Source of the DNA: Bacteroidaceae bacterium
GTDB taxonomy: Bacteria; Bacteroidota; Bacteroidia; Bacteroidales; Bacteroidaceae
Direction: 5' to 3'
Assembly: GCA_017547165.1 (NCBI GenBank)
Contig: JAFYQK010000005.1
Coordinates: forward strand, 1 to 64,000
DNA: 64,000 nt
Shown here: positions 31,665-51,075 of the stretch, piece after piece
Layout: each line of letters starts with the position of its first letter
How positions within the stretch are numbered: position 1 is the stretch's first letter
The notes under the pieces: model-generated
What the model was told of the DNA's origin: nothing
The model's database searches: none
Seen by the model: only the letters and a program-made list of their open reading frames with translations
Position numbers and translations under genes: made by a program

Positions 31665-34600
31665 ATGAAAAACATGTTTCCTTTATCAAAATCACAATAT
31701 GGTCTGTATGTAGACTGCATGAACAATATAGGCAAAGTTTGCTATAACTGCTCGTTCTGCTACCAACTTGACTCTAGCCTGGACGGAGACAGGCTAGCCC
31801 GAGCAATAGAAACAGCTTTTATCGCTCACCCGGCCCTATTTACCAGAATCAAAGTTAATGACGATGGAGAACCGGTGCAATATATTGAAATTTCGGATAT
31901 AGCATTGAATGTTACTATTGAGACAACAGTTGATATTGAAAAAGAAACAGCTAATTTTGTCCAGCCGTACAACCTCCATGAAGACAGACTGTTTAGAGTT
32001 CGGCTTTTAGAGGATAAGAATTACATCTATTTTCTGCTTGACATCCATCATATTGTCAGCGACGGCACCTCTTTCCAATTGTTACTGGAAGATATTGACA
32101 AAGCTTACAATGAAGAACCCATAGAGCAAGAGTTGGTCTCGCTGGGAGAGCATGCTAATTCAGAGACAGAGAAACGTGCCACTTCAGTGTTTGATGAGGG
32201 AAAGAAATGGTACGCTGAGAACTTCGAGAATTCGGACACTTACTCACAACTCATTCCTGATTTGGAACTTCCAGGAAGAAAAGAAGGTTTATTTACCAGG
32301 CCTTTGAATATACAAGTAGAAGAGATTGAGAGTTTTTGCAAAAAGAACGGAATTTACAAGAACAATCTGTTCACTACAGCATATGCCTTTTTATTGGCCA
32401 AGTACAATAACGAACAAGAAGTATTCTTTCCGACAGCATATAACGGACGTGCCGACAAACGACTGGCGCACACCGTAGGTATGTTTGTAAAAACTTTGCC
32501 AGTTCAGGTAAAATTCGACAATGACACCTCTTGCCTAGATCTACTAAAAAAGACCCAAGATCAAATGAGCGGATGTCGCAAGAATGACATTTACTCTTTT
32601 GTCGATTTTATGCAGGACATTGCTCCGCAGTACAATACCATGTTTGGCTGGCATGGCATGCTTTTTGAAAAAGACACCATGGGGGGCAAACCAATGATAA
32701 CAAAGTGGCTGGTGAATTCTACTTTGGGAGTATCGCTTTATGTGAGAGGTTGCATTGAAAACAACCAGTGTTTGATGACTGCCGAATATAATGAGAACGA
32801 ATATTCAAAAGAACTCATTGCCCAGTTCCTTGAAAGCTACGAGGCTGTTATAAATGGATTCCTGACACAAGAGTATTTGCGCAACATTTGTATCTCAACG
32901 CCTCAGCAGATAGATTTATTAGACACATTTAATCAGACTGAAAAAGATTACGATAACTCCCAAACCATTGTTTCCCTGTTCAAGAAGCAAGCAAGAGAAA
33001 CTCCAGAAAATGCAGCAGTTGTATTTAAAGACAAACAATACACCTATTTGCAGGTAGACGAAATAAGCAACCGCATTGCATCCTTCATCAACTCCAAAGG
33101 ACTGGACAAGGAGGATGTCGTATCAATACTTATCCCACGCAGCGAATGGATGGTAATAGCTCCCCTGGGGGTACTGAAAGCCGGGTGTGCATACCAACCG
33201 CTTGATCCGACATATCCGAAAGAACGTCTTAATTTCATGATGCAAGATGCTAATGTAAAATTACTTATTGCAAGCGAGGATTTATGCCAGTTGGCGACAG
33301 AATACACAGGCGACGTATTGCTGACAAAAGACATTTTAGATTTGCCTGAATTGCAAGTGGCAAATACAAAGTCCGTCACCCCCAACGATTTGTTTATACT
33401 CCTCTACACAAGCGGTTCAACCGGAGTGCCCAAAGGTTGTCAGTTGGAGCACCGCAACATTGTTGCTTTCTGCCATTGGTATCAATCATACTACGATTTG
33501 AAGAACGGTGACAAAGTAGCCACTTATGCAAGTTTTGGGTTTGATGCCAGCATGATGGATACCTATCCGACAATTACCAGTGGAGCTACTCTGTATATTA
33601 TTCCGGAAGAGATACGTTTGGACCTTGTTGCATTAAACGATTATTTTGAACAAAACGGAATCAGCCATTCCTTCATGACAACACAAGTTGGTTACCAGTT
33701 TGCCACAAGTATAGAAAACAAGACATTGAAACACCTTTCAGTTGGCGGCGAGAAACTGGCCTCACTGACTCCCCCCGAAGGTTTTAGTCTGCATAATCTT
33801 TATGGACCAACAGAAACCACCGTACTGACTACTGCGCATTGTGTCAATAAAAAACAGAAAGAAATACCCATTGGCAAAGCTATTGACAATATGCATCTAT
33901 ATATTGTTGACACAAACGGTCACCGTTTGCCAATAGGTGCTCCTGGAGAATTATGGATTGCAGGCCCGCAGGTATCGCGCGGTTATCTAAACCGCCCCGA
34001 AAAAACACAAGAAGTGTATCTGGACAATCCTTTTGAAAAAAAAACACAATACAATAGAGTTTATCGCTCGGGAGACATCGTTCGCTATTTGCCTTCTGGC
34101 GAAATACAGTTCATCGGACGAAGAGACGGACAGGTAAAAGTACGAGGTTTCCGCATAGAGCTTAAAGAGGTGGAGGCCATAATCAGAGAATTCCCAGGAA
34201 TTAAGGATGCTACGGTGCAGGCCTTCGACGAAGATGGTGGAGGCAAGTTTATTGCCGCATACATTGTCAGCAACCAACAGATTGACATTGATGCACTTAA
34301 CAACTTCATCATGAATGAAAAGCCACCATACATGGTACCTGCTGTCACGATGCAGATAGACAAGATTCCTCTCAACCAAAACCAAAAGGTGAACAAAAAG
34401 GCTTTGCCCAAACCAGAGAAAAAGTGCACAACAATCGAGGAAAGCAATGTTCCAATGAATGTTCTTGAGACTGAACTGCATGAACTTATTGCATCTACTA
34501 TCAACAACCGGGATTTTGGAATCACAACAATATTAGGCTATGCAGGAATGACCTCCATCACTGCCATAAAACTTGCAGTACAGATAAAGAAACTCTATGG

Positions 34601-37600
34601 AGTGACTATTGATTCTAAGACACTTGTAAAGACCGGAACACTGCAATCAATTGAAAATGACATTCTCCGCAAGATGCTGGCAAGCGGCAATGAAACCGAG
34701 AATACCACTGGCAGAAAGACAGAAGCATTCACCTCTGCCCCATTGTCGTACGCACAAACTGGTGTTTATTTTGAATGCTTAAAAAATCCGCTTTCAACAA
34801 TATACAATATTCCATGCCTACTAACCTACCCTAACGGCACTAATGCAAGCAGGCTGTCAGATGCAGTCAAAAGGGTCATTGCATGCCATCCGGAAATGAG
34901 TGTGTATTTCACTACTCATGAGAACGAAATAGTTCAAGCAATTGCAGATAACTCTTGGATGGATGTTGCTGTCAAGGCTATGGATGAAGAACAACTTGCT
35001 ACATACAAGCAAGAATTTGTTAAACCATTCAACATACAGAAAGCTCCCCTATATCGGTTCGAGGTGATAGAGACACCAAGTGCTGTTCATTTGCTAATGG
35101 ACGTACACCACCTTATTTTCGACGGAAGTTCTGCGGATTTACTCATACGCCAAATAAGTGAAGTCCTGGAAGAGAAACCGGTTAATGCTGAAACATATAC
35201 TTATCTTGACTTTGTACATGACCAAATAGAGAATGAAAAGACAGAAAGTTTCAAGAAAGCAGAAGAGTTCTTTGCTGAAAAACTGAAAAATTGTGAAAAC
35301 TCCAGCGAGATTCCTGCAGAACTACCGAAGAGTGACCGACAGGGATTCATCGGCGAGGCATCATGCGCTGTAGACCACGAGACCATTGCCCAATTCTGTC
35401 GTGAGCACGAAATAACTCCTGCACATCTCTTCTATGCTGCAACGGCATATGTTGTATCTAGATACACCAACAACAGAGATGTATATCTGTGCACCATAAG
35501 TAGCGGACGAAGCAACCTGAATATCGCAGAAACAGTAGGAATGTTTGTAAACACCTTGGCACTTGGCATTTCTATAGATGACATCACGGTTGAAGAATTT
35601 CTGCAATCGGCAAGCCACACCTTCACAGAAACACAAAACAACGAGAATTATCCCTTTGCCCGCATCGCTTCGGATTATGCATTCCAACCATCTATTGCCT
35701 ATGCATATCAGGTGGGCGTCTTGTCGGACTACGAACTGAATGGCGAAAAAATCCGTCAGGAAGTTTTGGAACTGAATGTGCCAAAGTTCAAAATAAACAT
35801 ACAAATACAATCAAATGGTGTTGTAGTTGAATACGACAACTCTTTATACACCCATGAATTGGCAGAATCAATGGCAGAAAGTATTGTTGCCGTTGCCGGA
35901 CAGATGATGAGATGCACATCGGAGAGAGTGCGCTTGCTGTCTATAATGGGACCTAAGCAGAAAAAGGCATTAGAAGGAATACAGACTGCAGCTGTAGGCG
36001 AGGCTCCATTTAAACTTTTCCATGAGTGCATCAGTCACTTTGCTGAAATACAACCAGAGACAACAGCCTTGATTGCTTGTGATGCAACATACACTTATGC
36101 CGATTTTGAAGATGCCACCGACAGAATAGCGACAGCTCTTTACAAGAGAGGTGTTCGCTCTTGCGACAGAGTCGCCTTGCTCCTGCCTCGTACAAGCCAT
36201 CTTATTTTGTCGCTGTTCGGTGTTTTGAAAGCAGGAGCCACTTATATCCCATGCGACCCAGAATATCCTTCTGACCGCGTCAAACTGATTCTGGAAGATT
36301 CGGAAGCAGCATACATCATCACCGATAGAGAACATGCTTCAGACCTGCCTGAAAACAAGATTATTTATTGTGACGACTTGATGATTGTTAAAGCAGAAAA
36401 AATACCTGTTTCAGTGACCCCTGACGACTTGGCATACATTATTTATACCAGCGGTTCCACTGGTCGCCCCAAAGGTGTTATGCTTCACCACGAAGGCATA
36501 TGCAACTATCTGTATGGTCATCCGGCAAATGTTTTTGCCAATGCCGTTGCAAAAGAGACAGAACGTATTTTAAGTGTTACAACCATCTCTTTTGACGCTG
36601 CACTCCAGGACATAGGCACATCCTTCTTTAATGGCAAGACTCTGATCTTGGCCACAGAAGAGCAGGCCAACAATCCCTTGGATTTAGCTTCACTTATAGA
36701 AACACACCATATTAACATGGTGTCCGGAACCCCATCACGATGGCAAGCATGGCTTGGCAGTGACGATTTCATAAATGCTATCAAAAACATACGCATTGCG
36801 CGTGCTGGCGGCGAGAAATTCTCAAACCAGCTACTTCAGCAGTTGCAATCCATCACAAAGGCCAGAATCTTCAATTGCTATGGCCCCACAGAAATAACCG
36901 TTGCCTCAAATAATAAGGAACTGACAAATGCATCGGCAGTGACTGTAGGCAAGCCTCAGCTAAATGTGAAGGAATACATTGTTGACCAAGATGGCAACGA
37001 GCTTCCTATTGGAGTTGTGGGCGAGTTGTATATTGGCGGTCGAGGAGTAGCTCGGGGTTATAATAATCTGGAAGATATGACCAAGGAACGCTTTGTCCAG
37101 TATCAAGGCGAACGAATTTACAAGTCGGGTGACTATGCCAAATGGACTCCCGATGGCGATGTCGTCATTTTGGGAAGAACTGACAACCAGATTAAGTTGA
37201 GAGGTTTACGCATTGAACTGAGCGAGATAGAAAATGTAATCTTGAAAGTCGATGGAATTGAAAAAGTTGTTATCCAGATTAGAAAGATTAACGAAAAGGA
37301 GCATCTATGCGCCTACTATACTGCCTCTCGCGAAATAACTCCAGATTCTCTGAAGGCAGAAATTTCCAAGCATCTCACCCAATATATGGTACCCACGGCA
37401 TATCTGCAATTAGCAAAAATGCCAATGACCCCCAACGGAAAGACCGATACAAAGGCCTTGCTAGAACCAGTACTGGCAATAACATCTGCCTATGAGGCTC
37501 CAAGCGACAAGGTGGAGCAGACATTCTGCGATATCTTTGCTGACATTCTGCAAATGGATAAGGTAGGAGCTACAGATAATTTCTTCGAACTCGGAGGCAC

Positions 37601-38921
37601 TTCACTCATTGTGACACGAGTGATTATTGATGCAGACAAAGCCGGTTACCGAATAACATATGGTGATGTGTTCAATCACTCCACTCCCCGACTGTTGGCC
37701 CGACTTGTAAAAGGTGACCAACAGACTGAAGAAGATGCCGTTGTTAGCGAATACAACTATGCTGACATCAACAATTTATTGAAAAAGAATACTCTTGACG
37801 CATTCCGCCAAGGAGAAAAACAGACTCTCGGCAATGTGCTTCTGACAGGAGCCACTGGCTATTTAGGCATACATATACTGAAGAAACTGCTTTCGTCTGC
37901 TGCGGATAAGATATATTGCCTTGTACGAGACAACACTTTAGAGGCAGCTGAGCAACGACTGAAGACACTGTTCTTCTACTATTTCAGCAACGATTACAGC
38001 CAACATTTCGGGGACAAGGTGAACATTGTTTTGGGCGATGTCACACACCCAATTGACGAGCACTTGCCAATAAATACGATATTCAACTGTGCAGCTGTAG
38101 TGAAGCACTTCTCTGAGGGAACTCTCATCGAGGATGTTAACATTGGAGGGGCACAACATTGTGTGGATTTCTGTTTGAAGAATGACGCCCAACTCATACA
38201 CATCTCTACCGCAAGTACACGAGGACTTAGCGTAAATGGCATACCTGCCAGCAACGAGGTGTTCACCGAGCAAAGTCTCTACATGGGACAATTCCTTGGC
38301 AACAAGTATATCTATTCGAAATTCATGGCCGAAAGACTCATCCTTGATGCAATCGCAACACAAGGACTTCGTGCAAAAATCATGCGTGTAGGCAACCTTG
38401 CAGCCCGTTCTACAGACGGAGAATTCCAGATCAATTTCTCCACCAACTCCTTCATGGGTCGCATAAAGGTATACAATATGCTTGGATGTTTCCCGCATGA
38501 TATGCGAACCTCACAAGTTGAATTCTCTCCAATCAACGAGGTTGCCGAAGCTATCATATGCTTGTCAAGCACTCCCAAAGAGTGCTGCGTGTTCCATCCA
38601 TACAATATTCACACACAATTCCTTGGAGATGTACTTAAGGGCCTGGAGTCTATTACAAAGCGTATAGATTTTGTAGAGATGGAGGAATTTGACGAGGTGA
38701 TGGAGCAAGCCAAAAATGATCCTGTGAAAGCAAGGATTCTTTCAAGTTTGCTTGCTTACCAGAATATGGCTCACGGGCAGAAGACAGGTGATGTTAAGCG
38801 AAGCAACGACTATACTACTCAAGTGCTCTTCCGTCTGGGATTCAGTTGGTCTCCCACATCATGGGATTATGTGGAACGCATGCTAAAAGCTATTGGAGGA
38901 CTTGGGTTCTTCGACCTATAA
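31665..38921 (+). CDS. Two-module NRPS with terminal reductase (C-A-T-C-A-T-R)
   Basis: A 2418-residue synthetase. C1 (about 1-430) has HHIVSDG at 128-134. A1 (about 440-940) has YTSGSTGVPKG near 581, LYGPTETT, and YRSGD. T1 carries Ser964 in GMTSITAIKL. C2 (about 1030-1440) has HHLIFDG at 1148-1154. A2 (about 1460-1940) has YTSGSTGRPKG near 1594 and NCYGPTEIT. T2 carries Ser1980 in LGGTSL. The reductase (about 2055-2418) has TGATGYLG at 2061-2068 and Tyr2215-x3-Lys2219. This order joins two amino acids and releases an aldehyde (or alcohol) with NAD(P)H. An N-terminal C domain often adds an acyl group. Dipeptide aldehydes from such gut NRPSs can cyclise to pyrazinones or inhibit proteases (known for the class). 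Substrates cannot be read with confidence. No PPTase or MbtH gene is nearby. Confidence 0.93.
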   Translation: MKNMFPLSKSQYGLYVDCMNNIGKVCYNCSFCYQLDSSLDGDRLARAIETAFIAHPALFTRIKVNDDGEPVQYIEISDIALNVTIETTVDIEKETANFVQPYNLHEDRLFRVRLLEDKNYIYFLLDIHHIVSDGTSFQLLLEDIDKAYNEEPIEQELVSLGEHANSETEKRATSVFDEGKKWYAENFENSDTYSQLIPDLELPGRKEGLFTRPLNIQVEEIESFCKKNGIYKNNLFTTAYAFLLAKYNNEQEVFFPTAYNGRADKRLAHTVGMFVKTLPVQVKFDNDTSCLDLLKKTQDQMSGCRKNDIYSFVDFMQDIAPQYNTMFGWHGMLFEKDTMGGKPMITKWLVNSTLGVSLYVRGCIENNQCLMTAEYNENEYSKELIAQFLESYEAVINGFLTQEYLRNICISTPQQIDLLDTFNQTEKDYDNSQTIVSLFKKQARETPENAAVVFKDKQYTYLQVDEISNRIASFINSKGLDKEDVVSILIPRSEWMVIAPLGVLKAGCAYQPLDPTYPKERLNFMMQDANVKLLIASEDLCQLATEYTGDVLLTKDILDLPELQVANTKSVTPNDLFILLYTSGSTGVPKGCQLEHRNIVAFCHWYQSYYDLKNGDKVATYASFGFDASMMDTYPTITSGATLYIIPEEIRLDLVALNDYFEQNGISHSFMTTQVGYQFATSIENKTLKHLSVGGEKLASLTPPEGFSLHNLYGPTETTVLTTAHCVNKKQKEIPIGKAIDNMHLYIVDTNGHRLPIGAPGELWIAGPQVSRGYLNRPEKTQEVYLDNPFEKKTQYNRVYRSGDIVRYLPSGEIQFIGRRDGQVKVRGFRIELKEVEAIIREFPGIKDATVQAFDEDGGGKFIAAYIVSNQQIDIDALNNFIMNEKPPYMVPAVTMQIDKIPLNQNQKVNKKALPKPEKKCTTIEESNVPMNVLETELHELIASTINNRDFGITTILGYAGMTSITAIKLAVQIKKLYGVTIDSKTLVKTGTLQSIENDILRKMLASGNETENTTGRKTEAFTSAPLSYAQTGVYFECLKNPLSTIYNIPCLLTYPNGTNASRLSDAVKRVIACHPEMSVYFTTHENEIVQAIADNSWMDVAVKAMDEEQLATYKQEFVKPFNIQKAPLYRFEVIETPSAVHLLMDVHHLIFDGSSADLLIRQISEVLEEKPVNAETYTYLDFVHDQIENEKTESFKKAEEFFAEKLKNCENSSEIPAELPKSDRQGFIGEASCAVDHETIAQFCREHEITPAHLFYAATAYVVSRYTNNRDVYLCTISSGRSNLNIAETVGMFVNTLALGISIDDITVEEFLQSASHTFTETQNNENYPFARIASDYAFQPSIAYAYQVGVLSDYELNGEKIRQEVLELNVPKFKINIQIQSNGVVVEYDNSLYTHELAESMAESIVAVAGQMMRCTSERVRLLSIMGPKQKKALEGIQTAAVGEAPFKLFHECISHFAEIQPETTALIACDATYTYADFEDATDRIATALYKRGVRSCDRVALLLPRTSHLILSLFGVLKAGATYIPCDPEYPSDRVKLILEDSEAAYIITDREHASDLPENKIIYCDDLMIVKAEKIPVSVTPDDLAYIIYTSGSTGRPKGVMLHHEGICNYLYGHPANVFANAVAKETERILSVTTISFDAALQDIGTSFFNGKTLILATEEQANNPLDLASLIETHHINMVSGTPSRWQAWLGSDDFINAIKNIRIARAGGEKFSNQLLQQLQSITKARIFNCYGPTEITVASNNKELTNASAVTVGKPQLNVKEYIVDQDGNELPIGVVGELYIGGRGVARGYNNLEDMTKERFVQYQGERIYKSGDYAKWTPDGDVVILGRTDNQIKLRGLRIELSEIENVILKVDGIEKVVIQIRKINEKEHLCAYYTASREITPDSLKAEISKHLTQYMVPTAYLQLAKMPMTPNGKTDTKALLEPVLAITSAYEAPSDKVEQTFCDIFADILQMDKVGATDNFFELGGTSLIVTRVIIDADKAGYRITYGDVFNHSTPRLLARLVKGDQQTEEDAVVSEYNYADINNLLKKNTLDAFRQGEKQTLGNVLLTGATGYLGIHILKKLLSSAADKIYCLVRDNTLEAAEQRLKTLFFYYFSNDYSQHFGDKVNIVLGDVTHPIDEHLPINTIFNCAAVVKHFSEGTLIEDVNIGGAQHCVDFCLKNDAQLIHISTASTRGLSVNGIPASNEVFTEQSLYMGQFLGNKYIYSKFMAERLILDAIATQGLRAKIMRVGNLAARSTDGEFQINFSTNSFMGRIKVYNMLGCFPHDMRTSQVEFSPINEVAEAIICLSSTPKECCVFHPYNIHTQFLGDVLKGLESITKRIDFVEMEEFDEVMEQAKNDPVKARILSSLLAYQNMAHGQKTGDVKRSNDYTTQVLFRLGFSWSPTSWDYVERMLKAIGGLGFFDL

Positions 38922-38970
38922 CAAACCAAGCAATTATACAGTAATACACAATACAGAAGAATAAATAATA

Positions 38971-40329
38971 ATGAAAACAATAGAATTAAGTCTGGCCCAG
39001 CAACTTGTGGCAGAAGGCATGCTCCTTTCAGAGGCAGCGCGTCAGGAGGTGCAGCAGAAACGATTGCGAGAATTGGTAGCATATGCCCGCCAACATTCGC
39101 CTTACTTCTCTAAACTATATGCAGGTCTGCCTGAAGATTTCAGTCTTACAGATATACCGTTTACCGAGAAATCCGTACTTTTGGAAAACTACGACGAATG
39201 GGTTACAGACCGCGACCTGCATTTGCAGGACGTACTTGATTATGTTGGTAGGGAGGAATCGAGAAGCGGAGAATTACTATTGGGCAAATACACCGCTTTG
39301 CGAACATCAGGTTCGTCAGGAAATCCTCTGCCAATGGTCAGAGACGACCATAGAAACAAAATACATGGCCAACTCATAGGGCAACGTCTGTGCGGACAGA
39401 TGGATCCTGATTTTCTTAACATCCGAAAGAACAAAGTGGCAACAGTGATTCATACATCCAACGGAGCATCAAGTTACGAAGCCGCCAAACGAATGGTAAG
39501 AGCGAATCCCGGATATGAGCACAACTTCTTATGCTTATCAGTCCTTGATAGTATTGAACATATTGTAGAAGAGTTGAATCGCTTCCAACCTGATAGCATG
39601 ACTGGATATCCATCTGTGTTGATTCAGTTGGCGCTCGAACAGCAAAAAGGAAACCTGAATATAAATTTAAAGGCATTGGCAAGTTCAGCAGAAATGCTTT
39701 CCGAAGAGAACTTCCACTTGATACAAAATACGTTTAATTGTCCGGTTGCAAATAATTACTGCATGACAGAGGGTGGAGAAATCGCCATGACCCACAATTG
39801 CCCACATCTTCACCTGAACGAAGATTGGATTATAGTTGAACCTGTTGACAAAGACAAGAATCCAATGGGAGAAACAGAAGAATGGTCAGAAGGCATCCTG
39901 GTGACAGATTTAAGCAATTTTGTGCAACCAATAATCCGCTACTATGTCAATGATGTCGTTCGCATCAGACGAAAGGTATTTGAATGCTGTCCTTTGCCTC
40001 AACTTGAAATCCGTGGTCGCGTTTTCCCAACTTACACCCTGGCAGGAAAAACATTCACGGCAGCCGCATTGGTGACAAAGGCCGAGGTTTGGGAAGGACT
40101 TACACAATATCAATTTGTACAAACAGATGATTGTACATTGGAACTTCGCGGAAAATGCCAGGTTGGATATGAACAGGAACTTGTATTAGGAGGTCTGGGC
40201 AAACAAATTCAGGCATTCTTTTTAGAAAACAATGCCCCTAACGCTCGCATCATATGGTCAGACAAACCATTTGTCCCCAACAAGCAAGGTGGCAAGACAC
40301 CTGTTTATATCCGATTGGATGCAGAGTAA
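38971..40329 (+). CDS. PaaK / coenzyme-F390-synthetase-like acyl-adenylating enzyme
   Basis: A 452-residue member of the adenylate-forming superfamily, closest in pattern to phenylacetate-CoA ligase and CapK/F390 synthetase. The P-loop is RTSGSSGNPLPM (111-122), TGYPSVLIQLA and YCMTEGGEIAMTHNC follow, and LEIRGRVFPTYTLAG marks the C-terminal hinge. It activates a carboxylic acid with ATP and may pass it to CoA or to another acceptor. It lies 49 bases after the NRPS and 35 before the MATE gene, so one operon is likely. Supplying the acyl starter for the C1 domain, or modifying the peptide, are the two obvious roles; neither is shown. Confidence 0.8.
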   Translation: MKTIELSLAQQLVAEGMLLSEAARQEVQQKRLRELVAYARQHSPYFSKLYAGLPEDFSLTDIPFTEKSVLLENYDEWVTDRDLHLQDVLDYVGREESRSGELLLGKYTALRTSGSSGNPLPMVRDDHRNKIHGQLIGQRLCGQMDPDFLNIRKNKVATVIHTSNGASSYEAAKRMVRANPGYEHNFLCLSVLDSIEHIVEELNRFQPDSMTGYPSVLIQLALEQQKGNLNINLKALASSAEMLSEENFHLIQNTFNCPVANNYCMTEGGEIAMTHNCPHLHLNEDWIIVEPVDKDKNPMGETEEWSEGILVTDLSNFVQPIIRYYVNDVVRIRRKVFECCPLPQLEIRGRVFPTYTLAGKTFTAAALVTKAEVWEGLTQYQFVQTDDCTLELRGKCQVGYEQELVLGGLGKQIQAFFLENNAPNARIIWSDKPFVPNKQGGKTPVYIRLDAE

Positions 40330-40364
40330 ACCTACTATAAGTTAAACCTTCTACCTTATTCAAT

Positions 40365-41690
40365 ATGGATTTACAGGAACAGCACAAACTGCAGACAACA
40401 TTTTGGCGTTATCTGTGGTCATCGATACTAATATCTTTATCTGCCAGCATAGGAACTATTGTGGATGGCATTATCGTGGGCAACCTGATTGGAGAAAAGG
40501 GTGTAAGCGCTATCAACCTAACAACACCAGTACTTCAGTTCATGGCAACCATCAGTCTTGTATTGGCGGCTGGAGCAGGAATACTATTAGGCTACACCTT
40601 GGGAAAGGGAGATATGCAACGCGTTCGAAAAATTTTCAGCATGTCTATGGAGGGAAGTTTGGTGGTTGGTGTGGTGTTTACCCTATTAGGGTTGTTTTAC
40701 AATGACACAATAGCAAGTGCCCTTTGCCAAAACCAGGAACTGCTGGCATACACCCAGGATTATCTCCAGGTGATGCTGTTAGGCGCACCCGCTTACATGC
40801 TGATGTGGGCCATATCCACTTTGATCGGAGTGGATGGCAGTCCACGCCTGGCTTCCGTTGCCCTGGTTATAGACAATGTCGTGAATCTGTGCCTGGATGT
40901 TGTATTCATGAAAGTATTCAGCTGGGGAATATCTGGTTCATCCTTGGCCAGTGTGATAGGCCACATTGTAGGTATCGGCATCATGTGTTATCACTTCTGC
41001 AAGAAAGAAAACAACCTATTCCTAACCTGGAAAAACGATATTTCTGAATGGAAAAACATTATTTCTCAAGGCGCTCCGCTTGCCATTGCTTCGATATGTT
41101 TGACCTTCCTGTTGCTATCGGCCAACCATATCTTTCTAAAAACACAAGGTGAGGGTGGTTTGTTCATCTTTGCCATCTGCATGAATCTTTTGCAGATATA
41201 CAATCTTTTTCTGGCTGGAACATGCCGAACCCTACAATCATTAGGCGCAATTCAAATAGGCAAACGAAACAGCGAAGGGTTTAAACTTGTACTTAACAAA
41301 TCCTTGATGTTCATAACCATTTCCATGGTGACAACATGCTTGCTGATTAGTTTCTTCCCAGAGGTAATCATACAAATGTTTGGTGGCAACGACCAGTCTC
41401 TTTTAACTGAAAGCAAACATGTTTTACGCATATTTGCCATCAGTTTCATCCCATTCTGCTACATTTATCTAATAATGATTGTGTATAAGTTGTACAATCA
41501 AAACAAGATGTCGCTGTTCATCTCATTCGCTTTGTCACTAACAGTGATTCCTGTGTTGTGGCTTGTATCACATTTTGCGACAGAATATGTTTGGTACAGC
41601 TATCTTATAGCCTATATCATAGAAATAGCCATGATTGCCTTTATACACAAGGCATCAAATGCGAGTTTTCAGTTAGCAGCTAACGACTAA
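40365..41690 (+). CDS. MATE-family efflux transporter
   Basis: A 441-residue protein with about twelve transmembrane helices in two homologous halves. The first half begins LWSSILISLSASIGTIVDGIIVGNLIGEKG in pieces, matching the MATE start, and VDGSPRLASVALVIDNVVN is the conserved helix 5-6 region. MATE pumps export organic cations and natural products in exchange for H+ or Na+. As third gene of the NRPS operon it probably exports the NRPS product or gives self-protection. Confidence 0.88.
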   Translation: MDLQEQHKLQTTFWRYLWSSILISLSASIGTIVDGIIVGNLIGEKGVSAINLTTPVLQFMATISLVLAAGAGILLGYTLGKGDMQRVRKIFSMSMEGSLVVGVVFTLLGLFYNDTIASALCQNQELLAYTQDYLQVMLLGAPAYMLMWAISTLIGVDGSPRLASVALVIDNVVNLCLDVVFMKVFSWGISGSSLASVIGHIVGIGIMCYHFCKKENNLFLTWKNDISEWKNIISQGAPLAIASICLTFLLLSANHIFLKTQGEGGLFIFAICMNLLQIYNLFLAGTCRTLQSLGAIQIGKRNSEGFKLVLNKSLMFITISMVTTCLLISFFPEVIIQMFGGNDQSLLTESKHVLRIFAISFIPFCYIYLIMIVYKLYNQNKMSLFISFALSLTVIPVLWLVSHFATEYVWYSYLIAYIIEIAMIAFIHKASNASFQLAAND

Positions 41691-41692
41691 AT

Positions 41693-41743
41693 GAAATTCC
41701 ATTGTATTGCCTGAGTTGTTTACAGGCAATACAATGGAATTTC
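41693..41743. terminator. Long bidirectional terminator ending the NRPS operon
   Basis: A perfect 21-bp inverted repeat (41693-41713 with 41723-41743) around a 9-base loop, located between the convergent MATE and STAS genes. Its length and perfection suggest strong insulation of the two transcripts. Confidence 0.85.
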
Positions 41744-41759
41744 AGCTCTAAGTTTTCTA

Positions 41760-42062
41760 TTATTCAATAGAAAGTATACGAGAAAAACCTGTCAAATCAA
41801 TAACCGCACGCACTTCACGAGTAAGGTTGCGCACAATGAACTTTCCGCCATTGGCGCTAACCTGCTTGTGTGCAGTCAGAATAACACGCAAACCAGAACT
41901 GCTCAAGTACTCTAACTTTTCACAATCAAAAACTAAGGTTATACCAGATTGTGTCCAAAGAGTGGATGCTACATTTTCTAATTCCATTGCTGTAATGGTA
42001 TCCACTCTTCCCTCTATAACAACGATTTTCTCGTTATCCTGTTCTAAAATCCTTGCTTCCAT
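41760..42062 (-). CDS. STAS-domain anti-sigma-factor antagonist (RsbV-like)
   Basis: A 100-residue single-domain STAS protein. VIEGRVDTITAMELEN, LVFDCEKLEYLSSSGLRVIL and the C-terminal VIDLTGFSRIL match RsbV/SpoIIAA. One of Ser54-Ser56 should be the phospho-acceptor. It is expected to bind the RsbW-like kinase when unphosphorylated. It is the last gene of a three-gene minus-strand operon with the kinase 15 bases upstream. Confidence 0.88.
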   Translation of the reverse strand: MEARILEQDNEKIVVIEGRVDTITAMELENVASTLWTQSGITLVFDCEKLEYLSSSGLRVILTAHKQVSANGGKFIVRNLTREVRAVIDLTGFSRILSIE

Positions 42063-42077
42063 TTTATTTTCGTATAA

Positions 42078-42488
42078 TTAGTTCATATGTTTTGTCATTA
42101 TCAAAATATTGGCTCCATCGGTGCGACTATATTCTACTGTATCCATAAGCTGACGCATCAGAAATATACCTAAACCGCCTATTTCTCTTTCTTCTGCAGG
42201 TAAAGTTATGTCTGCAATCTGAGCTTGGGTTGGATCAAATTCTTGTCCATAATCCTTCAACTCAAACCAAAGCATATTATCCTTCAGTCTTGCTGTCAAT
42301 AAAATCTCTTTCTCAATCTTGTCAGGATAAGCATATAGTATCACATTGGAAACAGCCTCCTCCAAAGCGAGATTAATATTGAACATCAAATCCTTTGGCA
42401 GATTTAATTCCTCACTCAAATCCTCTATAAAAACAGCGAGTTTAGCGATTTCAGAAGTTTCGCTTGTAAGAATCAGTTTCTTTTCCAT
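42078..42488 (-). CDS. RsbW-like anti-sigma serine kinase
   Basis: A 136-residue HATPase_c_2 protein. The N box is NLALEEAVSNVILYAY (Glu and Asn ligands), the G1 box KDYGQEFDP and the G2 box GGLGIFLMRQLMD. Relatives phosphorylate the STAS antagonist and hold a sigma factor or another regulator. The gene lies between the phosphatase and the STAS gene. No sigma factor is encoded next to it, so the target is unknown. Confidence 0.88.
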   Translation of the reverse strand: MEKKLILTSETSEIAKLAVFIEDLSEELNLPKDLMFNINLALEEAVSNVILYAYPDKIEKEILLTARLKDNMLWFELKDYGQEFDPTQAQIADITLPAEEREIGGLGIFLMRQLMDTVEYSRTDGANILIMTKHMN

Positions 42489-42505
42489 ATTTCACCCATT
42501 CTGTT

Positions 42506-44425
42506 TTATTTATATTGGACACACAAAACTGTAATGTCATCACTCTGCTCTGCACCATCCACAAACATACTCAAATCATTTAACACTGCCTCCACTATTG
42601 TGCGAGGATGGTGGTCATGTTTTGTCTGAAGCAAATTCATAAGCCGTTGGTCAGAGAAAAGGACTTTATCCTTATTTTCTGCCTCTGTCACGCCATCGGT
42701 ATATAAGAACAGCGAACTTCCCTTGGCTATATAACATTGCTGACCTACATAAGGAAAGTCAGTATACAGACCTAATGGCAAATTGGTTTCTATGTCCAAA
42801 CGCTTTATCTCTCCTTGCGAGTTTCTCACCAGCGGAGCGTTATGTCCTGCATTACAATACAGCAAATAGCCATTATCCAGGTTCAGCACTCCTATAAAAA
42901 AAGTACAGAACATGTTAGTTTCGTTTGACTCAGCCAAGACATTGTTAAGTGCCATGACTATCTCAGCTGGCGTTTCCATATGCAAAGATACCACGCGGAA
43001 CAAACGACAAATCACTGCCATAAACAAAGAAGCAGGAACCCCTTTACCAGAGACATCACCAATAATGAAATATAGCTTGCTTTCTCTTAAAAAGAAGTCA
43101 TATAAATCGCCTCCAACTTCTTTCGCAGGAATCAATTGTGCATAGAGGTCAACATCCTCTCTGTTCGGAAATGGGAGGAACACTTTTGGTATCATTCCCA
43201 TTTGGATATTACGGGCAATCCGCAATTCACTATCTATACGCTCCTTTTTGGCAGTTGCAACCTTCAGTTCGTCAATATATCTCACCAAAGATTCCTGCAT
43301 TGACAAAAAAGAGTTATGAAGCGTCTTCAACTCGTCCTTATTCTCTATATCAGGGAGGACAAAATCAAAATTACCATTTGCTATTTCGTTGGCAGAATTT
43401 GCAAACTGCTCTAAAGGTTTTGTCAAACGACGAATAGTCAGATAGCAGAAAGCTGATATCAAAAGCAGTCCTGACACAAACACGACAAGCACCGAGTTTC
43501 TCAATCCATTTATCCTGGCAAAGACCTCATTATAAGGACACACCACACAAATGCTCCACCCTGTAGTTTTAACCGGTGCATAAAACAAATAATATTCTTT
43601 GTCGTCAAAGGTTAATGAGGCCATTCCGCTTTCGCCATTCCTCATACGAACTCCAATATCCGGCAAAACCTCTTTTTCTTCTTGTTTCAAATGTGCAAAG
43701 AAGTTTTCCTTTAAGATGGTTTCCTTTCTGTTGTTTATCAAAAAAGTACCACTTCGCCCTATCATGAAATTACGCGAATTGGGGTACAGTTTTATATCGC
43801 TCACCGCTTTATCAAACTTTTCAATAGAGATGTCTGCCGTGAGTACAGCATACATAACACCCTCTTTGTCAAACAGAGGCATAGAATAGGTTGTCAACAC
43901 CAAATCACTGCCACCATAATCCCCATATGGCTCTGACCAATATGACTTGCCTTGCTGCTTTGGAGACATGTACCATTCCATATTGTGGTATTCATAATCC
44001 TTTGTACCCAATTGCTTATTACAAATTTCATTATCCTTCCTGTATGAGTATGGAGCGTATAATCTTCCTTTACTTGGAAAATAATTTGGTTCAAAAGCAA
44101 TGGCACTACCAACAATATAGGGGTTGGCTGCCACAATTTGTTTGGTCAGCTCATACATGTGATTAGGAGAGTCAAGATTATCTTCTACTACCCAAGAAAT
44201 GTTTTTAACTGCCGTTTCCACTGAAAAAAGGACCTTATCGATTTGCAACACAGTGTTATCCAGTTTGGCATAAGCTTGCTCCACCGCATATTCGTTTACC
44301 GATTCCCTTGCCTCTTCAAAATATATTCCGAATACAAAAACAAATACAGAAAAAATTACAATGAGAATTGACAAAGACATTCTCAAAGAGAATGACCGCT
44401 CCACTATCTGTCTTAATTTATTCAT
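42506..44425 (-). CDS. Membrane PP2C/SpoIIE phosphatase with sensor domain (RsbU-like)
   Basis: A 639-residue protein. Transmembrane helix 1 is about 17-35, the extracytoplasmic dCache-like sensor about 40-305, helix 2 about 310-330, HAMP about 330-385, a short coiled coil, then the PP2C_SIG/SpoIIE domain (about 410-639). The catalytic signatures GGDLYDFF, GDVSGKGVPASLFMA, NAGHNAPL and LYTDGVTEA with QSDDITVL carry the metal-binding Asp residues. It should sense an external signal and dephosphorylate the STAS protein, releasing the partner of the RsbW-like kinase. It heads the operon transcribed towards the NRPS cluster. Confidence 0.9.
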   Translation of the reverse strand: MNKLRQIVERSFSLRMSLSILIVIFSVFVFVFGIYFEEARESVNEYAVEQAYAKLDNTVLQIDKVLFSVETAVKNISWVVEDNLDSPNHMYELTKQIVAANPYIVGSAIAFEPNYFPSKGRLYAPYSYRKDNEICNKQLGTKDYEYHNMEWYMSPKQQGKSYWSEPYGDYGGSDLVLTTYSMPLFDKEGVMYAVLTADISIEKFDKAVSDIKLYPNSRNFMIGRSGTFLINNRKETILKENFFAHLKQEEKEVLPDIGVRMRNGESGMASLTFDDKEYYLFYAPVKTTGWSICVVCPYNEVFARINGLRNSVLVVFVSGLLLISAFCYLTIRRLTKPLEQFANSANEIANGNFDFVLPDIENKDELKTLHNSFLSMQESLVRYIDELKVATAKKERIDSELRIARNIQMGMIPKVFLPFPNREDVDLYAQLIPAKEVGGDLYDFFLRESKLYFIIGDVSGKGVPASLFMAVICRLFRVVSLHMETPAEIVMALNNVLAESNETNMFCTFFIGVLNLDNGYLLYCNAGHNAPLVRNSQGEIKRLDIETNLPLGLYTDFPYVGQQCYIAKGSSLFLYTDGVTEAENKDKVLFSDQRLMNLLQTKHDHHPRTIVEAVLNDLSMFVDGAEQSDDITVLCVQYK

Positions 44426-44788: not shown

Positions 44789-45247
44789 ATGCTGAAACTA
44801 AATCTTCCCGCTGCAAAACTTAAAATTGAGCGTCGCAAAGACAAACTCTTTGTGTGGGACTATATCCGTTTGCGTTGGATCGCTTTGACTCCAGAGGAGT
44901 GGGTAAGACAGCATTTTTCTCTTTGGCTTACACAGTATCTTGGTTATCCACAGCAGTGTTTAGGGCACGAGATAAGCTTGCAACTGAATGGTATGAAACG
45001 AAGGGCTGATGCTGTCCTCTTCACTCCTGAAGGCAGACCTACCATGATATTGGAATTCAAGGCTCCTCACATAAACATCACCCAAAAGACCTTTGACCAG
45101 ATTGGTCGCTACAACATGGTTATGCAAGTGCCATATCTCATTGTAAGCAACGGTATGCAACATTATTGTTGCAAGGTAAATGATGAAGGAATTGATTTTC
45201 TAAAGGATATTCCCCACTACACCCAACTCATGGACAAAAACAGATAA
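44789..45247 (+). CDS. HsdR N-terminal-domain protein (orphan nuclease-like)
   Basis: A 152-residue protein with the type I restriction R-subunit N-terminal fold: TPEEWVRQHFSLWLTQYLGY, then MKRRADAVLFTPEGRPTMILEFKAP, in which the Asp and E-x-K residues form a PD-(D/E)XK-type site. There is no helicase domain, methylase or specificity subunit nearby, so it is not a restriction system by itself. In Bacteroidetes this small protein is often found near holA; here the NRPS block separates them. Possibly a housekeeping nuclease; function unknown. Confidence 0.8.
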   Translation: MLKLNLPAAKLKIERRKDKLFVWDYIRLRWIALTPEEWVRQHFSLWLTQYLGYPQQCLGHEISLQLNGMKRRADAVLFTPEGRPTMILEFKAPHINITQKTFDQIGRYNMVMQVPYLIVSNGMQHYCCKVNDEGIDFLKDIPHYTQLMDKNR

Positions 45248-47074: not shown

Positions 47075-47288
47075 ATATGTATGTGTGTGTGGATAAATTC
47101 CAAGTGCAAAGTTACAAAAATATTCAACATAGAGATGCTTACAACACTTCTTTTTCATAGAAAACATTAGTTTTTTAACAGTTTGCTTCTCAAAATATTC
47201 TTTTTTATTACCTTTGGAGACTATTAGTGGTACTAACTACTGATTTTTGAACAAAAACACATTCTTCAACTTCATTAACCACTCTAAT

Positions 47289-48299
47289 ATGAACAGATAC
47301 TTGCCAGCAGAATGGCATCCTCAAGAAGCCGTACAACTGACATGGCCACACAGCGAAACAGACTGGGCAGACACACTACAAGAGGTGACCGAATGCTACA
47401 TCAACATAGCACGCGAGATTGCCATACGCCAACGGCTTTGGATTGTAACTCCACACCCCCAACGAGTACGTACTATACTCGAGGGAGTTCTCCCCAGAAA
47501 GGCATTGGCCAACATCGAATACTTCCGCATTGCCAGCAACGACACCTGGGCTCGCGACCATGCCTTCATCAGTTTGCTTCGGGAAGATGGCGTGCGAGAA
47601 CTTCTTGACTTTAATTTCAATGCATGGGGAGGCAAATTTGAAGCCAGTCTAGACAACGCCATCAACCGAGAGTTCTTTATGCAGAACTTTCAAGCAGATG
47701 ACAAAAACGTATATGTTGACAACCTTGACTTTGAACTCGAGGGCGGTTCTATTGAAAGTGATGGCAAAGGCACAATACTAACCACAGCACAATGCAACCT
47801 TAATGAAAATAGACGCACGAAATCCAAGCAGAGTCAAACACGGGTGAATAATACTGAACAAGAAGAAGAAAAAACAATTGCGAATGAACTATGCAACCGC
47901 CTCGGTGCCAAGCGCGTTCTTTGGCTACACCATGGAGGTCTTGAGCGCGACGACACCGATGCACACATTGACACGCTGGCTCGCTTTGCTCCCAACAACA
48001 CCATTGTCTATGGTGAGGGGTGCCCCGAAATGTATGAAGAACTTAAAACTTTCCGCACATTGCAAGGAGAACCATACCGCTTGATTGCCGTACCACCATA
48101 TTATGCCAACTTCCTGATTATAAACGGAGCAATACTACTCCCATTCTACGAAAACGAGGACGAGAACCAACGTGCCAAAGAAGCTCTCAAGATAGCGTTT
48201 CCTGACCGCGAAGTCATCGGCATAAATTGTAGCATACTTCTTACTCAAAACGGAAGCTTGCATTGTTGTACCATGCAGTATCCTTGCCTTAACTGTTAA
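47289..48299 (+). CDS. aguA: Agmatine deiminase
   Basis: A 336-residue guanidine-modifying enzyme that converts agmatine to N-carbamoylputrescine. MNRYLPAEWHPQEAVQLTWPH in parts, ARDHAF, LEGGSIESDG and the HGGLERDDTDAHIDT loop (catalytic Asp and His) are present, with the nucleophile Cys326 in SLHCCT. The segment after LTTAQCNLNENR is somewhat divergent (KSKQSQTRVNNTEQ), but the active site is intact. ATG at 47289 is used. TACCTTTG at 47210-47217 is a probable -7 element. The amidase aguB follows, completing a putrescine route. Confidence 0.9.
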   Translation: MNRYLPAEWHPQEAVQLTWPHSETDWADTLQEVTECYINIAREIAIRQRLWIVTPHPQRVRTILEGVLPRKALANIEYFRIASNDTWARDHAFISLLREDGVRELLDFNFNAWGGKFEASLDNAINREFFMQNFQADDKNVYVDNLDFELEGGSIESDGKGTILTTAQCNLNENRRTKSKQSQTRVNNTEQEEEKTIANELCNRLGAKRVLWLHHGGLERDDTDAHIDTLARFAPNNTIVYGEGCPEMYEELKTFRTLQGEPYRLIAVPPYYANFLIINGAILLPFYENEDENQRAKEALKIAFPDREVIGINCSILLTQNGSLHCCTMQYPCLNC

Positions 48300-48402
48300 A
48301 GATGAGCGGTGAGCAAAAAGTCATATAGAATCTCAGTTCTATTATTAAAGAATCTATCGAACCCACAACATCTATCCTCCTTAAACTCCAATTCTCTCTA
48401 AA

Positions 48403-49278
48403 ATGAAAATCGGAATCATACAACAAACCTGCTCTGACAACATTGAGAGCAACAAGCAAAAACTTGCCAAAAACATCCGCATAGCCGCTCAAAAAGGAGC
48501 TGAACTGATTGTTTTGCAAGAGTTGCACAATTCTCTATATTTTTGCCAAACAGAAAATGTCGAACTATGCTCGTTGGCAGAACCTATTCCTGGCCCAAGC
48601 ACCGATTTTTACGGAGCCTTGGCAAAGGAACTAAATATAGTTATTGTTACCAGTCTATTTGAGCGCCGTGCTCCTGGCCTCTACCACAATACGGCAGTTG
48701 TGATTGAACGCGATGGTAGCATTGCTGGCAAGTATCGCAAAATGCACATCCCCGACGACCCTGCCTATTACGAAAAGTTCTATTTCACTCCTGGCGATTT
48801 GGGGTTCCACCCAATCGACACTAGTATTGGCCGTCTAGGTGTACAGGTTTGCTGGGACCAGTGGTATCCCGAGGGAGCACGCCTTATGGCTTTGCAAGGA
48901 GCAGAGTTGCTCATCTACCCTACTGCTATCGGCTACGAGAGTAGCGATACACCCGAAGAGCAGGAACGCCAACGAGAGGCATGGACAACAGTTCAACGTG
49001 GTCATGCCGTTGCCAATGGTTTACCTGTAATCGCCGTTAATCGCACTGGTCACGAACCTGATCCCTCTGGCCAAACCAACGGCATACAATTCTGGGGAAG
49101 CAGTTTCATTTGCGGTCCACAGGGCGAATTCCTTTATCGTGCACCCAAAGACGAGGAGATAGTTGAAGTAATAGAAGTTAACATGCAACGATGCGAGAAT
49201 GTACGCCGTTGGTGGCCTTTCTTACGCGACCGCCGTATCGAAGAATTCTCTCCACTCACCCGAAGATTTATTGATTAG
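48403..49278 (+). CDS. aguB: N-carbamoylputrescine amidase
   Basis: A 291-residue nitrilase-superfamily enzyme that hydrolyses N-carbamoylputrescine to putrescine, ammonia and CO2. The catalytic triad Glu40 (VLQELH), Lys113 (YRKMHIP) and Cys150 (QVCWDQWYPE) is complete. The gap to aguA is 103 bases, and both run rightward, so co-transcription is likely. Length and motif order are normal. Confidence 0.93.
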   Translation: MKIGIIQQTCSDNIESNKQKLAKNIRIAAQKGAELIVLQELHNSLYFCQTENVELCSLAEPIPGPSTDFYGALAKELNIVIVTSLFERRAPGLYHNTAVVIERDGSIAGKYRKMHIPDDPAYYEKFYFTPGDLGFHPIDTSIGRLGVQVCWDQWYPEGARLMALQGAELLIYPTAIGYESSDTPEEQERQREAWTTVQRGHAVANGLPVIAVNRTGHEPDPSGQTNGIQFWGSSFICGPQGEFLYRAPKDEEIVEVIEVNMQRCENVRRWWPFLRDRRIEEFSPLTRRFID

Positions 49279-50288: not shown

Positions 50289-50349
50289 CACTCGCAAAAC
50301 AGAGATAAGTTCTAGTGAGGACTTGAAAACAACATCTCAAACTGCAAAT

Positions 50350-50424
50350 GGGTGATTAGCTCAGCTGGTTCAGAGCATCTGCCTTACAAGCAGAGGGTCG
50401 GCGGTTCGAATCCGTCATCACCCA
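50350..50424 (+). tRNA. tRNA-Val (anticodon TAC)
   Basis: A 75-base cloverleaf: acceptor GGGTGAT/ATCACCC, anticodon loop with TTACAAG, T arm GGTTCGAATCC, discriminator A. First gene of the array; identical in the mature region to the copy at 50908. Confidence 0.95.
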
Positions 50425-50437
50425 CCCACACAAGGAT

Positions 50438-50511
50438 GGCTCCTTAGCTCAACTGAATAGAGCATTTGACTACGGATCAAAAGGTTGCAGGTTTGAATCC
50501 TGCAGGAGTCA
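50438..50511 (+). tRNA. tRNA-Arg (anticodon ACG)
   Basis: A 74-base cloverleaf: acceptor GGCTCCT/AGGAGTC with one G-T pair, anticodon loop CTACGGA, T arm GCAGGTTTGAATCCTGC. A second copy lies at 50996. Confidence 0.93.
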
Positions 50512-50528
50512 CACCAAGTAAAGATATT

Positions 50529-50611
50529 GGGTAGGTAGGTAAGTGGTTAAAACGGGCAGACTGTAAATCTGTTGGCTTGCGCCTTCGGCGGTTCGAATCC
50601 GTCCCTGCCCA
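50529..50611 (+). tRNA. tRNA-Tyr (anticodon GTA)
   Basis: An 83-base tRNA with a long variable arm (GGCTTGCGCCTTCGGC region), anticodon loop CTGTAAA, and acceptor GGGTAGG/CCTGCCC. Confidence 0.93.
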
Positions 50612-50646
50612 CTCACACAAGCCAAAGTGTGAGACAAAACAAAAAT

Positions 50647-50719
50647 GCGGAAATAGCTCAGTTGGTAGAGCACAACCTTGCCAAGGTTGGGGTCGCGAGT
50701 TCGAGCCTCGTTTTCCGCT
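50647..50719 (+). tRNA. tRNA-Gly (anticodon GCC)
   Basis: A 73-base cloverleaf: acceptor GCGGAAA/TTTCCGC, anticodon loop TTGCCAA, T arm with GTTCGAGCC, discriminator T as usual for Gly. Confidence 0.93.
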
Positions 50720-50737
50720 CTAAACAAAACCAACAAT

Positions 50738-50811
50738 GGTGCGGTAGTTCAGTTGGTTAGAATACTAGCCTGTCACGCTAGGGGTCGCGGGTTCGAGCCC
50801 CGTCCGCACCG
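50738..50811 (+). tRNA. tRNA-Asp (anticodon GTC)
   Basis: A 74-base cloverleaf: acceptor GGTGCGG/CCGCACC, anticodon loop CTGTCAC, T arm GGGTTCGAGCCCC, discriminator G as expected for Asp. Confidence 0.94.
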
Positions 50812-50907
50812 CAAAAGAAAATAATGAGAATCGAGCGGAACATTCTCCTCTTATTTAAAGTTGAAAAACTTTATTAACAAAGTCTAACAAAGACAGATTC
50901 CGCAAAT

Positions 50908-50982
50908 GGGTGATTAGCTCAGCTGGTTCAGAGCATCTGCCTTACAAGCAGAGGGTCGGCGGTTCGAATCCGTCATCACCCA
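50908..50982 (+). tRNA. tRNA-Val (anticodon TAC), second copy
   Basis: Same 75-base sequence as the tRNA at 50350, including the TTACAAG anticodon loop and the ATCACCC acceptor strand. Confidence 0.95.
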
Positions 50983-50995
50983 CTCACACAAGGAT

Positions 50996-51069
50996 GGCTC
51001 CTTAGCTCAACTGAATAGAGCATTTGACTACGGATCAAAAGGTTGCAGGTTTGAATCCTGCAGGAGTCA
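50996..51069 (+). tRNA. tRNA-Arg (anticodon ACG), second copy
   Basis: Same 74-base sequence as the tRNA at 50438. It ends seven bases before the terminator stem of the array. Confidence 0.93.
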
Positions 51070-51075
51070 CTAAGA

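What the first reader, a model, noticed from the sequence alone, without database searches (positions are those of the whole stretch)
31665..41743. Two-module NRPS operon predicted to make a dipeptide aldehyde or pyrazinone
The 2418-residue protein shows a complete C-A-T-C-A-T-R order with intact HHxxxDG motifs, carrier serines (964, 1980) and reductase residues (TGATGYLG, Tyr2215/Lys2219). It is followed by an acyl-adenylating enzyme and a MATE pump in one operon ended by a 21-bp perfect hairpin. Reductive NRPSs of this size from gut anaerobes are known to give dipeptide aldehydes that inhibit host proteases or cyclise to pyrazinones; a Bacteroidales example with this partner set may be undescribed.
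Basis: partly seen in the sequence, partly recalled or inferred. Interest (0 to 1): 0.85.

Follow-up and report, generated by a model that had tools for sequence, protein, structure and literature searches.

The report
Bacteroidales peptide-aldehyde synthetase beside sensor switch
An intact two-amino-acid peptide-making enzyme with a reductase ending, of a family found in ruminant gut Bacteroidales, lies beside a membrane sensor switch of a kind that most of its relatives also carry nearby, which hints that the small peptide belongs to a regulated, perhaps sensing, circuit.

Summary
Frame 31665-38921 is an intact C-A-T-C-A-T-R synthetase with every named residue in place, then a PaaK-like adenylating enzyme, a MATE pump and a perfect hairpin (22-nt arms, not 21). 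A reductively released dipeptide is likely. A pyrazinone is less likely: the family keeps an intact leading condensation domain of its own clade, as expected if the first amine is capped, though it does not resemble known starter domains. Of 71 related loci, 59 carry ruminant labels; no title shown names a human source. In 48 of 54 relatives with at least 5 kb upstream, a SpoIIE gene stands upstream of the synthetase. In 201 family genomes, 22 of 22 with a strong synthetase match carry SpoIIE (64 of 179 others), 18 of 22 within 6 kb. Against a dedicated switch here: SpoIIE is common in the order (218 of 294), and the window's copy groups with switches that have no synthetase beside them, so its link is a separate recruitment or coincidence. 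Product, signal and output are unknown.

The parts
31665..38921 (+). two-module NRPS, C-A-T-C-A-T-R, 2418 aa
31665..32954 (+). C1, leading condensation domain (own clade in the family; HHIVSDG)
32955..34424 (+). A1 adenylation domain; code DAMFSGLVLK (aliphatic-like, by inference)
34440..34694 (+). T1 carrier, Ser964 in GYAGMTSI
34695..35999 (+). C2, elongation condensation domain (HHLIFDG)
36000..37484 (+). A2 adenylation domain; code DAQ?RGCVAK (position 278: W by MAFFT, S by the PS anchor); substrate not assignable
37500..37754 (+). T2 carrier, Ser1980 in LGGTSL
37755..38918 (+). R, terminal thioester reductase (TGATGYLG, Y2215, K2219)
38971..40329 (+). PaaK/F390-synthetase-like adenylating enzyme, rare NRPS-associated accessory
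40365..41690 (+). MATE exporter
41692..41744 (.). perfect inverted repeat, 22-nt arms, 9-nt loop, between convergent units
41760..42062 (-). STAS (RsbV-like) protein, 100 aa
42078..42488 (-). HATPase_c_2 (RsbW-like) kinase, 136 aa
42506..44425 (-). dCache-HAMP-SpoIIE (PP2C) sensor phosphatase, 639 aa; the only SpoIIE match found in this genome (84.5% complete)

Best explanation
The operon makes and exports a small, reductively released dipeptide, and it belongs to a Bacteroidales gene family whose expression or action is tied to a partner switch. Proposed course: a phosphopantetheinyl transferase arms both carriers; A1 loads an aliphatic-type residue and A2 a second residue of unknown type; C1 caps the first amine with an acyl group (source unknown; the PaaK-like enzyme may activate it); C2 joins the two; R releases the chain as an aldehyde (or alcohol); the MATE pump exports it. 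Next door, a periplasmic dCache sensor sets the activity of the SpoIIE phosphatase, which with the HATPase kinase sets the phosphorylation of the STAS protein; STAS then acts on an unknown target that affects this pathway. Shown here: the genes, intact motifs, conserved domain order and the statistical link to SpoIIE switches in the family. Inferred: acyl cap, substrates, aldehyde, export, and any effect of the switch.
For: Intact motifs; full order in 60 frames; the T-R part matches the solved T-R pair 6vtj (335 bits) and the AusA reductase 4f6l (175 bits). Leading C1: HHxxxD in 60 of 60, HHxxxDG in 57 of 60; one clade of 60 C1 apart from 60 C2 and 8 C domains of three-module relatives without a leading C (FastTree, midpoint root). 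One ACPS-family match in the genome, in a 205-aa frame. Switch: of 54 loci with at least 5 kb upstream, 48 have a SpoIIE match upstream of the synthetase (one of them, L071, only a 109-aa piece) and 46 a STAS gene in the locus. Of 201 family genomes, 22 of 22 with a synthetase match of at least 695 bits have SpoIIE against 64 of 179 others, 18 of 22 within 6 kb on one contig. In the window's genus 7 of 7 against 2 of 6. In the family of G238 (4 genomes, one genus) only G238 has the synthetase and only G238 has SpoIIE, beside it. Linked phosphatases are not one clade: starred branches force at least 4 label changes, and gene orders differ.
Against: SpoIIE is common and often multi-copy in the order sample: 218 of 294 genomes, while 28 of 294 have a condensation domain of any kind. 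The window's phosphatase nests (96, starred) among free switches of relatives without a strong synthetase match, where a 314-348-aa gene lies directly upstream (the copy in G448 reads NMT1-type binding protein), so here the linkage may be coincidence. The closest synthetase (G448, 74% over the second module and R) has that switch on another contig and only a STAS gene beside its synthetase. Six of 54 loci have no SpoIIE upstream. SpoIIE-STAS modules also sit beside unrelated genes such as transporters. C1 is not nearest to known starter structures: 7c1k (recalled as a starter C) scores 23.5 bits with C1 and 54.3 with C2; both C1 and C2 are nearest to elongation domains. The outer-membrane barrel of many relatives gave no match in this genome. 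No product, no expression data.
Confidence: 0.5

Rival explanations
1. An ordinary reductive dipeptide NRPS with an exporter; the switch beside it in this window is an unrelated neighbour, and the product is a protease-inhibiting peptide aldehyde used against competitors or protozoa.
For: The window's switch belongs to a clade of free switches and SpoIIE is common in the order. MATE is found in 38 of 55 loci with at least 1.5 kb downstream. Protease inhibition is ascribed to the dipeptide aldehyde form in gut anaerobes (passages of PMC12153313).
Against: Family-wide linkage of SpoIIE modules to these synthetases by several separate routes.
Confidence: 0.3
2. The leading C domain takes no acyl group; the product is a free-amine dipeptide aldehyde that closes to a dihydropyrazinone or pyrazinone.
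For: NCBIfam's best-scoring model is AusA; C1 resembles elongation C domains in the comparison with solved structures.
Against: The leading C keeps HHxxxD in 60 of 60 frames, although the 4 three-module relatives do without a leading C.
Confidence: 0.12
3. The switch senses an outside cue (for example AI-2 or another dCache ligand) and turns production on; the peptide is not its ligand. (This can hold together with the best explanation.)
For: dCache_1 proteins, serine phosphatases among them, were reported as AI-2 receptors in rumen bacteria (abstract and passages of PMC9540692). Sensor parts vary, and two of the linked phosphatases scanned match no Cache model (L019, L092).
Against: The window's sensor reads NMEWY where that paper asks for R126 and W128 (my reading by eye of the sequence printed, not aligned to PctA).
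Confidence: 0.3

Closest known systems
AusA (aureusimine synthetase, Staphylococcus aureus; NF047350)
   Same: two modules, terminal R, R domains alignable (4f6l, 175 bits)
   Different: AusA is described with one C domain (passages), so no leading C; profile score 1164 against a cut-off of 2500; no partner switch known to me beside it
Human-gut dipeptide-aldehyde NRPS clusters and ruminopeptin of Ruminococcus bromii
   Same: dipeptide aldehydes as products (review passages of PMC12327764); a leading C domain and N-acyl cap in ruminopeptin are from recall
   Different: R. bromii is a Firmicute (recall); sequences were not compared here; no partner switch known to me beside them
Methanobrevibacter ruminantium NRPS mru_0068
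   Same: two modules with a leading C, a MatE gene, two serine phosphatases and an anti-sigma antagonist around it (passages of PMC2812497); 6vtj is, by recall, a T-R structure of an M. ruminantium NRPS
   Different: an archaeon; the paper's text gives a thioesterase at its end while a supplementary figure legend names a thioester reductase; sequence not compared here
RsbU/RsbW/RsbV and SypE/SypA partner switches
   Same: SpoIIE phosphatase, HATPase kinase, STAS protein; SypA acts on an unknown target (passages of PMC8256260)
   Different: in most relatives phosphatase and kinase are fused (52 of 61 linked rows have a kinase match in the same frame); the neighbour is a peptide synthetase

Membership tests
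Reductive (R-terminated) dimodular NRPS | two A-T pairs with an intervening C and a terminal R domain with TGxxGxxG and YxxxK | tested here: met
Aureusimine synthetase AusA (NF047350) | profile score at or over the curated cut-off | tested here: not met
   1164 of 2500 bits
Aureusimine synthetase AusA (NF047350) | starts with A, no leading C | tested here: not met
   leading C1 in the window; AusA's order from passages
Acyl-initiating (starter C) lipopeptide NRPS | leading C domain, intact HHxxxDG, of a type distinct from elongation C | tested here: met
   own clade (FastTree, midpoint root, supports 1.0 and 0.996 on the two sides), HHxxxD 60 of 60, HHxxxDG 57 of 60
Acyl-initiating (starter C) lipopeptide NRPS | sequence kinship with known starter C domains | tested here: inconclusive
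   CDA C1 (4jn3) 25.5 bits with C1, 22.2 with C2; 7c1k 23.5 and 54.3; best hits of both are elongation domains; which structures are starters is recall
Acyl-initiating (starter C) lipopeptide NRPS | acylated product | not testable with these tools
   no chemistry
Partner switch (RsbU/W/V type) | SpoIIE phosphatase, HATPase_c_2 kinase and STAS protein encoded together | tested here: met
Partner switch (RsbU/W/V type) | target sigma factor or other output | not tested
   no sigma gene was looked for
PaaK / F390-synthetase-related adenylating enzymes | score over a curated cut-off | tested here: not met
   TIGR02304 111 of 251.9; TIGR02155 20.9 of 646.3; Pfam AMP-binding 22 of 29.9
CahR-type dCache AI-2 receptor | five pocket residues R126, W128, Y144, D146, D173 of PctA | not tested
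   no PctA alignment made; by eye the first pair is not R-x-W

The most novel reading that the evidence does not exclude
The synthetase, pump and dCache-SpoIIE switch form one chemical signalling circuit: the capped peptide aldehyde (or a product of it) is sensed in the periplasm by the linked dCache phosphatase, which resets the STAS output, with each lineage pairing its own peptide with its own sensor; the similar gene set described in a rumen methanogen would make it a circuit shared between Bacteria and Archaea.
Probability: 0.12. Interest if true: 0.8.

Novelty: new variant of a known kind. Interest (0 to 1): 0.5.

Why it matters
If the linkage means what it suggests, Bacteroidales of the ruminant gut control peptide-aldehyde production through a partner switch with an extracytoplasmic sensor. 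Five searches of the held library aimed at this coupling (listings seen, and passages only of the papers named here) showed no description of it beyond the 2010 note on a rumen methanogen. It gives a concrete route to a signal (the sensor domain) and an output (the STAS target) for a synthetase family present in 22 of 201 genomes of its family sample.

Tried and rejected
Viral contigs: no stretch matched the six peptide patterns, which find close relatives only. Plasmids: only distant NRPSs (best row 28.5% identity). Nothing points to a phage or plasmid origin. Pyrazinone as the main reading was demoted (see rivals). Assigning A-domain substrates was given up: the codes match nothing I can cite, the ten positions follow GrsA numbering from recall, and position 278 of A2 depends on the alignment.

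Sensor-product matching was tested by partial Mantel on 36 of 71 loci (those with a full-order synthetase, a SpoIIE protein of 650-800 aa and an A2 code). Sensor distance against A2-code distance given the phosphatase domain: r 0.30, p 0.001; phosphatase given the sensor: -0.06. With kinase and R as further controls: 0.23 in all 36 and 0.34 in 27 dereplicated loci, but 0.10 (p 0.26) in the 16 loci without the dominant DAQ code. There the sensor went with C1 instead (0.35, p 0.0015). Nine pairs were tried and eight in each of three sets, without correction; the strongest was sensor with the barrel protein (0.46). The A2 signal rests on one main split and is taken as no more than a hint.

The 695-bit line for 'synthetase present' was set after seeing the table; at 600 bits it is 25 of 26 against 61 of 175, with 19 of 26 linked. 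Fisher values (about 1e-9) ignore kinship. That searches drew the same 201 genomes is judged from their shared handles. Genomes reached by loci and by group overlap: identical coordinates show that L022, L006, L063 and L069 lie in G446, G477, G351 and G465, so the counts by locus and by genome are not independent. The phosphatase tree holds 91 rows, 61 linked and 30 free; I picked the free stretches by hand; L090 and L095 repeat L006 and L039; four long branches, L085 and L092 (linked) and L098 and L101 (free), are placed unsurely.

PMC12918008 (cattle epithelium MAGs, passages) counts NRPS clusters but describes none like this in what I saw. Protein folding was not used.
Full report
What is there. 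The frame at 31665-38921 (+) is intact and 2418 aa long. A PaaK-like adenylating enzyme (38971-40329) and a MATE exporter (40365-41690) follow with short gaps. The hairpin has 22-nt arms and stands between two convergent units. The window lies in a 2.26-Mb, 84.5% complete genome of 26 contigs in which both condensation matches are in this frame and one ACPS-family match was found. G446, of the same genus, has the coordinates of the genome of L022, titled Bacteroidaceae bacterium Tb.RUG.375.

The family. The single scan of named genomes gave 72 loci; one remote hit (L074, 24%) was dropped, leaving 71 in Bacteroidales MAGs, 39-72% identical in their best segments. By my count 59 of 71 titles are ruminant. 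Of 87 frames examined, window included, 60 (in 56 loci and the window) show the complete C-A-T-C-A-T-R order, 4 a three-module order without a leading C, and 23 are shorter: contig ends, split or partial frames, three stand-alone A or A-T frames beside a synthetase, and the two of L074. In the 201-genome family sample 22 genomes have a match of at least 695 bits to the second half of the synthetase. A1 codes begin DAMFSG in 39 of 60 frames; A2 codes are more varied, DAQ-type in 26 of 60, DAEGTGVDDK in 8, DAMFSGGIFK in 7, and nine further codes. Products should therefore differ, most of all in the second residue (inference).

The leading condensation domain. All 60 C1 domains fall on one side of the tree; all 60 C2 domains and the 8 C domains of three-module enzymes fall on the other. 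HHxxxD is kept in 60 of 60. This argues for a working leading domain and so for a capped amine. Against it, profile comparison with solved structures puts C1 nearest to elongation domains, and 7c1k, which I recall as a starter domain, is nearer to C2 (54.3 bits) than to C1 (23.5 bits). The donor is open.

The PaaK-like enzyme. At E <= 1e-20 it is in 2 of 201 family genomes, both directly behind the synthetase, and in 3 of 71 loci, one of them the same genome as. It misses the curated cut-offs; its nearest solved kin are phenylacetate-CoA ligases (41.5 bits). It looks like an accessory of this pathway, of unknown substrate.

The neighbour that was missed. On the other strand, 41760-44425 encodes STAS, an RsbW-like kinase and a dCache-HAMP-SpoIIE phosphatase, the only SpoIIE match in the genome. 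Of 54 loci with at least 5 kb upstream, 48 have a SpoIIE match upstream of the synthetase (one only a 109-aa piece), 46 a STAS gene in the locus; the six without SpoIIE are L021, L027, L031, L034, L043 and L063; MATE is in 38 of 55 loci with at least 1.5 kb downstream. Relatives of an outer-membrane barrel gene (Alginate_exp over its cut-off in L004, under it in L055) were found in 26 of the 36 loci; it stands between STAS and synthetase in several loci printed; no match was found in the window's genome, an empty answer without a positive control. All 45 synthetase genomes searched by handle have SpoIIE, eight of them exactly one, others up to 24. In the family sample SpoIIE is in 22 of 22 synthetase genomes and 64 of 179 others, within 6 kb in 18 of 22; the four others are G448, G351, G521, and G401, whose frame starts near the contig's start. 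In the window's genus it is 7 of 7 against 2 of 6. In the family of G238 (4 genomes, one genus) the synthetase bearer alone has SpoIIE, beside it. Gene orders differ: upstream, downstream on the same strand, or convergent. Against specificity, SpoIIE occurs in 218 of 294 genomes of the order sample, in many of them in several copies, while any condensation domain occurs in 28 of 294.

How far this bears on the window. In a tree of 91 phosphatase domains (61 linked, 30 free) one group holds 49 linked rows and 2 free ones; linked rows need 7 changes in all, at least 4 forced by starred branches. The window's phosphatase lies in a starred group of five with four free switches. In those four (G473, G487, G515, G470) the phosphatase and kinase, with STAS in two of them, stand with a 314-348-aa gene directly upstream and no synthetase in the stretch fetched. 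In the window that upstream gene is not there. So here the switch was either recruited separately or landed by chance. Free modules elsewhere stand beside a Na+/H+ exchanger (L099), a citrate-type transporter (L102) or other genes: the switch is a general device, and these synthetases are one frequent partner.

What it probably does. I take it as a capped dipeptide aldehyde (or alcohol) pathway with export, in a family under a sensor-driven partner switch. That the peptide is itself the signal is the boldest reading the data allow; the only direct hint, a sensor-product correlation, disappears outside the dominant code class. Leahy et al. 2010 describe phosphatases, an anti-sigma antagonist and MatE around an M. 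ruminantium NRPS gene (passages), which suggests that the coupling is wider; I could not compare those sequences. Archaea have no bacterial sigma factors (general knowledge), so the output there cannot be one.

Novelty. Rumen NRPS clusters are known in bulk (passages of PMC8241843), one rumen paper counts dimodular pyrazinone-type NRPSs in 13 of 981 genomes and files them under quorum sensing (passages of PMC9540692), and reductive dipeptide synthetases are a known kind. This Bacteroidales family, its leading-C form and its link to partner switches were not seen described in nine literature searches (listings, and passages of seven papers), apart from the methanogen note. Most subscription papers are not in that library, and the two papers I sought by DOI were not held.

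Noticed in passing
L021:15408-18581, L032:3551-6661, L047:17084-20194: Frames of about 1040-1060 aa with an A (or A-T) domain and no C found stand directly beside the synthetase in three loci; possible in-trans loading partners.
   Followed up: no
L016, L026, L036, L044, L046: Two reductive synthetase genes stand in tandem or close together; in each of the five pairs the A2 codes differ.
   Followed up: no
L099:2318-8531 and L102:4829-9159: SpoIIE-kinase fusion plus STAS beside a Na+/H+ exchanger with TrkA_C (L099) and a citrate-type transporter with TrkA_C (L102): switches without a synthetase in the stretch.
   Followed up: partly
L087 (G448): The closest synthetase found (74% over its second half) is split into two frames and has a STAS gene but no phosphatase beside it.
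   Followed up: partly
window 47247-49278: Agmatine-deiminase-type (PAD_porph) and carbon-nitrogen hydrolase genes side by side, as in putrescine synthesis (recall).
   Followed up: no
window 50349-51070: tRNA cluster with the Val(tac)-Arg(acg) pair twice.
   Followed up: no
window 44789-45247: A 152-aa protein with a type I restriction R-subunit N-terminal domain alone, beside the switch.
   Followed up: no
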